From contig JBAMJV010009059.1 of assembly GCA_037951105.1 (NCBI GenBank), positions 1-64,000 of the forward strand: 64,000 bases of DNA, in the 5' to 3' direction. A program made the position numbers and the translations under genes. Shown one piece after another: positions 11,901-26,631 of the stretch. The notes below the pieces were generated by a model, which saw nothing but the letters and a program-made list of their open reading frames with translations, was not told the origin of the DNA and did not search any database. Each line of letters starts with the position of its first letter. Positions within the stretch are counted from its first letter, which is position 1. This DNA comes from Echinarachnius parma. Lineage: Eukaryota > Echinodermata > Echinoidea > Clypeasteroida > Echinarachniidae.

Positions 11901-14900
11901 AAAATAAAAATAAAAATAAAGGAGTTCTTCTTAATATTCATGATCATTATTTTTCTCTGCAGCTTTGTGCGATCTATTACGATGGACAAGTGGAAAGACA
12001 GTGAGCTTGAGAAGATGAAGGCAGGAGGCAACAATACGAGTAGGGCGTTCCTGAAGGGCCAACCAGACTACGATCCCAACTGGACCTTCCAGGAAAAATA
12101 CAACAGCAAAGCAGCCGCTCTTCTAAGAGATAAGGTAAATATCAAATTCAGATAATAAGTAGACATCTAGAGGAAGAAAGAAAATATATAATGATAGTAG
12201 CAATAATTTAAGGTGGATAATTTTGGCAGGAGGCAACAATATGAGCAGAGCGTTCCTGAAGGGCCAACCAGACTATGATCCCAACTGGACCTTCCAGGAA
12301 AAATACAACAGCAAAGCAGCCGCTCTTCTGAGAGATAAGGTAAATTGTATTTATCAAGTAGTGCATCCAACCAAAAAAATACTTTTTTTTTCACGAGGGC
12401 GATTTTGGAAATTTTGAGGGAGAAAAACGCCCTCGTGAAATTATTCACGAGGGCAATTTTGGGGCTCACGGGGGCTCTTTTTTTTTTTTTACATCGTTTT
12501 CACTGCTCAAGGGTCTAATAAATGATTTAATGATGTGATCTTTCCGATTATGCCATGTTTTGTACGTTTCTGGCGCTTTCCGATCATGCAAAAAGATGTT
12601 TTAAAATTGTTTATTTATTTTTTTTTTCCTTCGCCCCCGTGCCGTGGCTCACGGGGGCGATTTCAAAGGTATCGGGGGCGAATCGCCCATCGCCCCCGTG
12701 TATTTTTTGGGTTGAGTGCATCTAGTAGAAGATAAGAAAACAATTGTAGACTTGTAGTAGCAATAACAGGTGGATAATTGAGGCAGGAGGTAACAATACA
12801 AGAAGGGAGTTCCTGAAAAGCCAGCCAGACTACGATCCCAACTACGATCCCAACTGGACCTTCCAGGAAAAATATAATGGCAAAGCAGCCGCTCTTCTAA
12901 GAGATAACGTATGTTGCTAAAAATTTAATTTTATTCATGTCTTCTTTCCTAGCTTTGTCTTTAGCAATAATATTGATTTTCAGCAGACTTGGCATAGACA
13001 TGCCAAAAACAATGACACATTGATTGTTACAGAAGCTGATGGCAAGCCATAGTCTATAGAAATGTCCAAGGCTCGTAATCAGCACTAATACACCTAAGCT
13101 TTCACATAGCAGCATACATCGCTTAAAATTGCAGATTGCCTAGCTTCATTACAACTGTGTTGCATTTACTTAAATAATGACAGTTTGTATTCTATTTATT
13201 TGATGATTTAGGTTTAACAGAAGCAAAGGGCAAGCAAGGGTCAATTGTTTTAAACTTCCAAGGTTTGCAACCATGTACCCTACGTAGCTAAGCTGACCTC
13301 TAATAGAGTGGTGTGATGTCATAAATGATGTCATAAACATTTTTTTTAGAATTTTCAAATTTGGACTTCATTTTCAAAAAGAGCATAACAAATAATGTCC
13401 AAATAACAAAAATCAAAGGAATAGGTTACGTATTGGCCGAGATATGCCCATCTGAATGATTTTGTGGTCAATGGGCAATCAGTGTTATAGTGCACTGGTT
13501 CCTAAATTTAGGAACCAGTGCATTATAACACTGATTGCCCATTGAAGTAAAATTCATTCGGATGGGCATATCTCAGCCAATGCGTAACCTATTCCTTTGA
13601 TTTTCGGTATTTGGACATTATTTGTTATGCTCTTGAAAATTCTAAAAAAGTGTTTTTATGACGTCATGGCTTCTGTACTCTATACACTCAAGCCTTCACA
13701 TTGCTCCATATATCATTCTAATATCTTGCCTTACTTTGGTACTATTTCAGCAAAAACAATGTCACCTTTTCATTCCATTTATTTGATAACTGTAGGTTAT
13801 AACAGAAGCAGAGGGCAAGCCGTGGTCTATAGAAACGTCCAAGGCTCGCAATCATGTACCCTACGTAGCGAAAATGACCTCCAATACACTCAAGACTTCA
13901 CATATCTCCGCCATACATCACTCCAGTAGCTCACCCAACTTTAGTAAAGGCAGCAGCAGTAGCAGCGGTGGTGGTGGTGGTGGTGGTGGTGGTTATAACG
14001 CTGGCGGAGCCGTGTTATCGGGAAGTGGTCACGGGTCGGACGACTGGAACATGGATTATGGCGTTTCAAAGTAAGTGATTTCAACTTATTAAGTTGGGAC
14101 TTAATATGGTGCTTGATAATAGCATTGGTCCAATGGCAGTGGCCAGTAAAAATTATTTTTTGGGGCCATTATAATTTAAGTAAAATGCTTTATCGCACTT
14201 GTCCAATGGTTCTTTCAAATTCGAATTCAATTTAATTAGCATTTCCATAAAAAAACATACATATAAAATACAAGCAATATATAGGAATACTACACATACA
14301 ATAAACAAGGAAAATGCAGCAGAAGGGCAGAGCCCTTTATCACCTCAGTACAAAATAAAAACATGTTTCTATGATTGCCCTGTCATACTCAAATCCATAC
14401 ACATGTATGCACACTCACACACACACACACACTCACATGCACACATACACACAAAATACACATATATGCCAAGTGATTATTGCACATTTGAATTTCCATT
14501 TTTTTAAAATTGAGTGATGAACGTACTCTTAATATTTTCTGGTATTTCATTCCATATTTTTGGACCATTACAAATGTTTAAAATTTGTTAATGTTTTCTT
14601 TGTAAGGGGCCACTCAATTCTTATTTTGGACCACCAAAAATGTTTCAAATCTTGATTTTCCTTTTACATGAATTGGCAACCTGGGCAAAACCGCATTAGC
14701 TTAGTTCCATTATAAGTCTATTTTTTATGCCAGGACTAAGTGAGCAGTAGCTAGATTGAGACTGGAATTGACCACTGAAGGCTGCCATGTTTTCCAACGC
14801 CTCTGCATCCACATGCCACTGATCATGCACTTACAAATGTGGGCTTCATAATTTCTGTTCAGTTTGATTCCATGTCGGTGGTAACGGGACCCGCTTTTGT

Positions 14901-26631: not shown

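What the first reader, a model, noticed from the sequence alone, without database searches (positions are those of the whole stretch)
11963..26165. Exon edges of ARFGAP1 have been tandemly copied into its own introns many times
Exons 3 and 4 exist in three copies each, the end of exon 6 in four, the end of exon 12 in five, and the exon 11/12 border in about six. Each copy carries the exon edge plus its splice site rather than a whole exon. Such repeated copying inside one gene, and also in the neighbouring light-chain gene, suggests a local process (replication slippage, RNA-mediated patching or repair) that acts on exon borders. I know of no standard description for this pattern.
Basis: partly seen in the sequence, partly recalled or inferred. 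Interest (0 to 1): 0.72.

Follow-up and report, generated by a model that had tools for sequence, protein, structure and literature searches.

The report
Decayed tandem copies of exon edges
Short stretches of this animal's DNA have been duplicated in place at many sampled spots in its genome, and where such a stretch straddles the end of an exon it leaves a decaying half-exon in the neighbouring intron; it looks mostly like ordinary mutation kept visible by the conserved exon beside it, not a process aimed at exon borders.

Summary
The copies are real. ARFGAP1 (13 exons, 539 aa) has partial local copies of exon 3, exon 4, the end of exon 6, the exon 11 start and both ends of exon 12; the neighbouring myosin light-chain exon has them too. 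Copies carry flanking intron, in several cases about as well conserved as the exon part, so these are DNA-level local duplications, not RNA-derived patches.

In 41 independent exon loci of the same genome (kinases and other ArfGAP genes), 17 exons overlap a local direct duplication, against 8.8 expected from same-sized stretches of the same loci. Among pairs at least 80% alike there is no excess (7 against 6.8); the excess is in old pairs (10 against 1.7). The copies decay as if neutral while the true exon is conserved. Simulating that one-sided decay gives 1.3–1.4-fold, so part of the excess stays unexplained.

Verdict: a genome-wide background of local duplication, probably filtered by selection and kept visible by exon conservation. 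Tandem duplication across an exon border is already described. The genome is probably an echinoderm's.

The parts
11963..12134 (+). ARFGAP1 exon 3 (functional)
   Evidence: gene model
12225..12345 (+). copy 2 of exon 3 tail plus donor; 5 differences in 115 exon bases (4 synonymous, 1 not); the following intron is also homologous (15/79 differences, 6 gaps)
12368..12714 (.). insert with short inverted ends flanked by the 8-base direct repeat AGTGCATC (12360-12367 and 12715-12722), lying inside the intron part of copy 2; MITE-like
12782..12914 (+). copy 3 of exon 3 tail plus donor, with an internal 12-base duplication; 11/115 differences
13024..13140 (+). copy a of exon 4 head; acceptor AG lost, deletion inside
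13145..13306 (+). copy b of intron 3 end, acceptor and exon 4 head (continues at 13680-13752 beyond a palindromic insert)
13796..14070 (+). ARFGAP1 exon 4 (functional)
15582..15693 (+). ARFGAP1 exon 6 (functional)
15785..15868 (+). copy 2 of exon 6 tail plus donor
15957..16040 (+). copy 3 of exon 6 tail plus donor (copies 2 and 3 differ at 1 of 70 exon-side bases)
16119..16183 (+). copy 4 of exon 6 tail plus donor and following intron
24227..24286 (+). ARFGAP1 exon 11 (functional); its acceptor and head (24209-24257) belong to the intron 11 array
24440..24540 (+). weak unit of the intron 11 array
   Evidence: not significant singly against exon 11: 729 of 1000 shuffles
24700..24800 (+). weak unit of the intron 11 array
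   Evidence: 23 of 1000 shuffles
24868..24979 (+). array unit: exon 11-like head (24878-24915) followed by a copy of the exon 12 acceptor and head
25086..25160 (+). array unit with a copy of the exon 12 head from about 25118, acceptor lost by deletion
25251..25321 (+). array unit at the end of intron 11, directly before exon 12, with exon 11-like head (25256-25303)
25322..25492 (+). ARFGAP1 exon 12 (functional)
25592..25651 (+). copy 2 of exon 12 tail plus donor
25734..25831 (+). copy 3 of exon 12 tail plus donor, from a 332-base double unit
25927..25986 (+). copy 4 of exon 12 tail plus donor
26069..26167 (+). copy 5 of exon 12 tail plus donor
677..840 (+). last coding exon of a myosin regulatory light-chain gene (functional)
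   Evidence: sequence; PDB hits to regulatory light chains, E down to 1.2e-24
146..211 (+). copy of the head of that exon with its acceptor (516 bases upstream)
931..1051 (+). copy of the end of that exon plus the bases after the stop codon; a weaker third copy near 1110-1150 seen only in the alignment

Best explanation
The copies are products of ordinary local DNA duplication. This genome, probably an echinoderm's, has a high density of short direct duplications (offsets mostly 90-250 bases, tandem or nearly so) in introns and elsewhere. When the duplicated stretch straddles an exon end, it leaves a half-exon with a splice site in the adjoining intron: downstream for exon tails, upstream for exon heads, as the geometry demands. 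Such half-exons are probably tolerated because the true exon is still defined by its own nearest pair of splice sites, whereas duplications inside an exon or of a whole exon with both sites would change the mRNA and be removed. After birth the half-exon decays neutrally while its source exon stays conserved, so the pair remains recognisable longer than an intron-intron pair; that makes exon edges look singled out. Shown here: DNA-level copying with intron, occurrence in many sampled genes, no excess among younger pairs, one-sided neutral decay, copy number differing between related loci. Inferred: the selective filter, and the molecular cause (slippage, or repair of staggered breaks and template switching within about 200 bases, then unequal exchange).
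For: Intron is copied with exon, with similar divergence in several families: exon 12 copy 3 exon 5/91, intron 4/110; exon 12 head exon 6/50, intron 6/59; exon 6 copy 2 exon 12/57, intron 3/19. Genome sample: 17 of 41 independent exons overlap a local direct duplication, expected 8.79; at best identity 80% or more 7 against 6.84, at 85% or more 2 against 4.38. Background coverage of non-exon bases 15% in the first 20 loci. In 20 exon copies from 18 loci (the hits of the 41 plus L018) the first two codon positions differ at 142/1204 (11.8%) and the third at 133/599 (22.2%), near the 1:2 expected if only the source exon is constrained; 11 of 20 have a frameshifting gap and 9 of 20 a stop. Related loci carry similar arrays with different copy numbers (L027/L028, L018/L019, L053/L054). 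An insert with an 8-base direct repeat at both ends sits inside the exon 3 copy 2 unit, so that unit is a real, old part of the chromosome.
Against: Among old pairs (best identity under 80%) exons exceed controls 10 to 1.71, while the one-sided-decay simulation predicts only 1.2-1.6-fold in that bin. With the overall factor of 1.4 the total excess is still marginal (17 against 12.17, P 0.036). Exon-overlapping offsets (131-247) are narrower than the background (60 to over 600), and offsets under 140 are rare at exons (1 of 41 against 2.84 expected). Exon 3 copy 2 is much better conserved in its exon part (5/115) than in its intron part (15/79), and so is exon 12 copy 2 (3/55 against 17/99). 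In ten window copies changes are 38.5 synonymous to 30.5 not, somewhat more synonymous than my own rough neutral expectation of about 40-44%; the copies are not independent. The selective filter was not tested.
Confidence: 0.8

Rival explanations
1. Exon borders are true hotspots: a nucleosome-positioned or replication-linked process duplicates units of nucleosome-repeat length (about 150-220 bases) preferentially at exon edges.
For: Total excess at exons 17 against 8.79 (P 0.0007), 14 against 5.80 for offsets 140-230; old pairs 10 against 1.71; exon-overlapping offsets cluster at 131-247.
Against: No excess among pairs at least 80% identical (7 against 6.84) or 85% (2 against 4.38); the background spectrum covers the same length range, 46 of 65 clusters at 90-210. 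No nucleosome data were available.
Confidence: 0.12
2. The copies are maintained as functional decoys or poison exons that regulate splicing or transcript level.
For: Donor GT is intact in all 9 tail copies of exons 3, 6 and 12 (alignments). Reading on from the true donor into the intron meets a stop after 18, 123 and 1 bases for exons 3, 6 and 12, so use of a downstream copy donor would truncate the protein. Exon 3 copy 2 is unusually well conserved.
Against: Codon-position pattern and damaged frames of 20 copies fit neutral decay; acceptors are lost in two head copies; copy number varies between related loci. A poison exon needs no open frame, so the codon test does not exclude this for single cases.
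Confidence: 0.05
3. RNA-mediated patching: exon ends are copied back into the gene from RNA.
For: Copies contain exon edges with their splice site. In two units an exon 11-like piece stands just before an exon 12 head (24878-24915 before 24930; 25256-25303 before 25322), which at first sight resembles a joined exon 11-12 border.
Against: In those two units the pieces are separated by 14 and 18 bases, and at 25256 the homology reaches upstream of exon 11 into its intron (24209-24226), so they are not spliced junctions. Copies contain tens to over 100 bases of adjoining intron; 15% of non-exon sequence in the first 20 loci shows the same kind of duplication.
Confidence: 0.02
4. Assembly artefact: haplotypes or short-read repeats expanded in tandem.
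For: The assembly holds pairs of very similar contigs (for example L004/L005, 98.8% over 3.1 kb).
Against: The ARFGAP1 copies differ from their source by 4-25% with separate indels, inserts and lost sites; similar arrays recur in related loci; ARFGAP1 matches of 60% identity or more lie on one contig only.
Confidence: 0.02

Closest known systems
Tandem genomic duplication crossing an intron-exon boundary, potato RdRp gene (PMC4974935, passages read)
   Same: A local tandem duplication takes in the end of an intron, its acceptor and the start of the next exon.
   Different: There the copy became a working new intron-exon pair; here no use of the copies is shown, several edges have more than one copy, and it recurs in 17 of 41 sampled exons.
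Tandem-duplication route to novel introns in Drosophila (PMC2891723, passages read)
   Same: Regional tandem duplication of coding sequence with splice motifs.
   Different: There the duplication lies inside the coding exon and creates an intron; here it straddles an existing border and lengthens an intron.
Tandem and partially tandem insertions attributed to break repair in rice (Vaughn and Bennetzen 2014, as described in PMC7407515, passages read)
   Same: Duplications of 10-1000 bases, tandem or partly tandem, some with source sequence within 200 bases.
   Different: Described for insertions in a plant; here mostly old copies in an animal, and no breakpoint signature was established.
Tandem exon duplication / mutually exclusive exons (recalled; search listings only)
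   Same: Exon sequence repeated within a gene.
   Different: Those copy a whole exon with both splice sites and keep the frame; here only an edge is copied and frames decay.

Membership tests
local tandem duplication crossing an exon-intron boundary | direct orientation and close spacing to the source | tested here: met
   source-to-copy offsets 152-773 bases for exons 3, 4, 6 and 12 of ARFGAP1, all plus-strand
local tandem duplication crossing an exon-intron boundary | copied block is continuous across the border (exon plus intron) | tested here: met
   alignments
local tandem duplication crossing an exon-intron boundary | same kind of duplication also found away from exons | tested here: met
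   15% of non-exon bases in 20 loci; 65 clusters not touching the matched exon in 41 loci; some of these may touch unannotated exons
[quoted passage not shown]
   no RNA data; use of a downstream copy donor of exons 3, 6 or 12 would meet a stop. Exon 11 itself shares the array unit, so exonisation of a unit is possible but untested
tandem exon duplication (alternative exons) | whole exon with acceptor and donor copied | tested here: not met
   only one edge in each copy of exons 3, 4, 6 and 12; in 17 of 17 independent genome hits the copies lie on one side of the matched interval, which is not the annotated exon
tandem exon duplication (alternative exons) | reading frame kept in the copy | tested here: not met
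   11 of 20 copies with a frameshifting gap, 9 of 20 with a stop
RNA-derived copy (retrocopy or RNA-templated patch) | introns absent, spliced junctions present | tested here: not met
   copies carry adjoining intron; the exon 11-like piece before exon 12 is not a spliced junction
Introner or other mobile element | copies dispersed over the genome with target duplications | tested here: inconclusive
   protein search, which scored 80 of 83 candidates, found close ARFGAP1 matches only on the window's contig; the DNA search of one unit did not complete

The most novel reading that the evidence does not exclude
This lineage had, or has, an unusually active local duplicator with units near nucleosome-repeat length, and exon borders are real hotspots or refuges for its products: about 40% of exons carry decayed half-exon arrays, mostly old, in excess of what one-sided conservation explains; now and then a unit may be taken up as an exon (exon 11 of ARFGAP1 shares the unit of the array behind it).
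Probability: 0.15. Interest if true: 0.6.

Novelty: new member of a known kind. Interest (0 to 1): 0.33.

Why it matters
If about 40% of exons in a genome sit beside decayed half-exons with splice-site-like ends, gene finders will over-call partial exons. The same half-exons are raw material for new splice sites, exons and introns. The case also warns that conservation of one partner makes random duplications look targeted at exons. How the rate compares with other animals was not measured.

Tried and rejected
Rejected: RNA-mediated patching (intron is copied too), assembly artefact (copies diverged, similar arrays in related loci), functional alternative exons as the general rule (frames decay). 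Considered and left open: exon-border hotspot, because of the excess in old pairs; exonisation of an array unit as exon 11.

Led nowhere: searches of further gene families (PF00063, PF00225, PF00005) did not complete because the machine was busy, so the genome sample is 35 kinase and 6 ArfGAP loci. The Pfam search of five ORFs gave only sub-threshold hits for those at 35.2 kb (WBP-1), 47.8 kb (TMEM52) and 63.4 kb, and none at 60.3 kb, so exons in the right half of the window are unannotated and the window was not used for the enrichment test. The paper searches listed no report that I recognised as exon-edge arrays in an echinoderm; I saw titles and starts of abstracts, opened three papers by passages, and subscription papers are mostly not held.

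Weak points of the sample: 48 kinase places were picked by hand, not exhaustively, out of 138 rows (short matches, most equal-scoring duplicates skipped), plus the 8 ArfGAP loci. Of these 56 loci 15 were dropped as related (600 or more shared bases), among them L018, which fell into one group with L007. Control stretches contain unannotated exons, which raises the expected count. The matched interval, not the true exon, defines the exon there. The simulations assume simple rates, and the split at 80% identity was chosen after seeing the data.

Errors made and corrected: the codon counts used a wrong frame for the light-chain exon and a misaligned exon 12 copy; one search replaces them.

Full report
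What is there. The window lies in a 1.2-Gb genome held as 14,790 contigs. Its mitochondrial COX1 scores best under genetic code 9 (510.1 bits, against 507.6 under code 4 and 496.5 under code 5), and the conserved stretch read as MNNMSFW in the alignment needs AAA as Asn (codon seen). From general knowledge that code is used by echinoderms and flatworms; I take the animal as an echinoderm, a flatworm not being formally excluded. On the + strand the window holds the end of a myosin regulatory light-chain gene and ARFGAP1 with 13 exons, all introns GT-AG, 539 codons, ArfGap domain E 8.6e-32. Protein search of the whole genome puts the close ARFGAP1 matches on this contig; the other hits are at most 59% identical.

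The observation. Self-comparison confirms partial copies of exon 3 (tail), exon 4 (head), exon 6 (tail), exon 12 (head and tail) and of both ends of the light-chain exon. At the exon 11/12 border there is an array of six related units, of which the first is the acceptor and head of exon 11 itself and the last is the end of intron 11. Two of the other five match exon 11 beyond chance singly (0 of 1000 shuffles); the rest are tied to the array by a shared motif and by the joint alignment. Whether the exon 11 head was copied or an array unit was taken up as exon 11 cannot be told here. The aligned copy families include intron. In exon 12 the intron part of copy 3 is as well conserved as the exon part (4/110 against 5/91); in exon 3 copy 2 it is less so (15/79 against 5/115). 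The unit of exon 3 copy 2 is interrupted by a 347-base insert with an 8-base direct repeat at its ends; copy b of exon 4 is split by a palindromic insert.

Is it special to this gene? No. From the kinase family search (138 rows) I fetched 48 places by hand selection and used the 8 ArfGAP loci. After dropping 15 related loci, 41 remained. In 17 of 41 the matched exon overlaps, by 30 bases or more, a local direct duplication with offset 40-1000. Same-sized stretches elsewhere in the same loci give 8.79 (ratio 1.93, P 0.0007). An earlier count on 35 loci gave 14 against 7.89. Twelve are exon heads and five tails. About 15% of non-exon bases in the first 20 loci lie in such duplications.

Is it aimed at exon borders? 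Split by best identity: 80% or more, 7 against 6.84; 85% or more, 2 against 4.38; under 80%, 10 against 1.71. So younger duplications do not favour exons; the excess is in old ones. A reason is visible in the copies. In 20 copies from 18 loci (L018 added to the 17 hits) the first two codon positions differ from the source exon at 11.8% and the third at 22.2%; 11 have frameshifting gaps and 9 have stops. That is what a freely decaying copy beside a protein-constrained exon should give: one changing partner at positions 1 and 2, two at position 3. Such pairs stay detectable longer. A simulation with the same search settings gives 1.34- to 1.44-fold more exon-edge than intron pairs. The observed total is still marginally above that (17 against 12.17, P 0.036), and the under-80% bin is well above it (10 against 2.40). 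A past burst of duplication whose intron pairs have by now faded would do this, as would a true border preference in the past; I cannot separate them. Unannotated exons in the controls bias the other way.

Lengths. Offsets of exon-overlapping clusters are 131-247 bases (17 clusters). Of the 65 others 57 lie between 60 and 240, and 46 at 90-210. In a detection simulation the share found rises slowly with unit length (0.46 at 75 bases, 0.55 at 165, 0.67 at 225, 0.76 at 500; nothing at 45), so the fall beyond 240 is not a detection effect. This is near nucleosome-repeat and Okazaki-fragment length (general knowledge), which is suggestive only. Short offsets are scarce at exons (1 of 41 against 2.84), in line with the idea that a second splice site very close by would disturb splicing; that idea is inference.

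How it most likely works. Short stretches are duplicated in place by replication slippage or break repair. Duplications that straddle one exon end leave the true exon intact and are tolerated; whole-exon or within-exon duplications would alter the mRNA and are lost. Arrays then grow and shrink: related loci carry similar arrays with different copy numbers (L027 and L028, L018 and L019, L053 and L054), and in exon 12 a 332-base double unit was itself duplicated. Shown: copying at DNA level, spread over many sampled genes, neutral decay, copy-number difference. Inferred: the repair mechanism and the selective filter.

Known precedents. A potato gene has a tandem duplication that crosses the border of an intron and the next exon and made a new intron (PMC4974935, passages). 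Tandem duplications are proposed to have created introns in Drosophila genes (PMC2891723, passages). Insertions in rice are described as often tandem or partly tandem duplications, some with sources within 200 bases (PMC7407515, passages). So the kind of event is known. What may be unusual is its frequency, which could not be compared with other animals here.

Noticed in passing
24209-24286 and 24878-24915, 25256-25303: Exon 11 of ARFGAP1 shares its acceptor and head with the repeated unit of the intron behind it (0 of 1000 shuffles for two units): either an exon head copied repeatedly, or an array unit that became an exon.
   Followed up: partly
7315-9777 (-): Open reading frame of 821 codons with endonuclease and reverse-transcriptase domains (RVT_1 E 3.7e-37): a non-LTR-type retroelement in ARFGAP1 intron 1.
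   Followed up: partly
22801-23214: Minisatellite of 40-base units, 10.4 copies, 98% matches, in ARFGAP1 intron 10.
   Followed up: no
22172-22558, 27551-27936, 53750-54121: Dispersed repeat family (70-87% identity), one copy about 0.9 kb after the ARFGAP1 coding end; a shorter relative lies at 21048-21281.
   Followed up: no
13370-13640, 28926-29177, 31353-31656, 16941-17132: Long imperfect palindromes, probably foldback or MITE-like elements.
   Followed up: no
59009-60359: Direct duplication of about 650 bases, 92% identical.
   Followed up: no
63427-63907: Coding-like open frame with an internal direct repeat of about 240 bases (74%), with no Pfam hit over its cut-off.
   Followed up: no
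L053/L054, L018/L019, L027/L028: Related kinase loci with similar exon-edge arrays but different copy numbers; useful for dating and rate estimates.
   Followed up: partly
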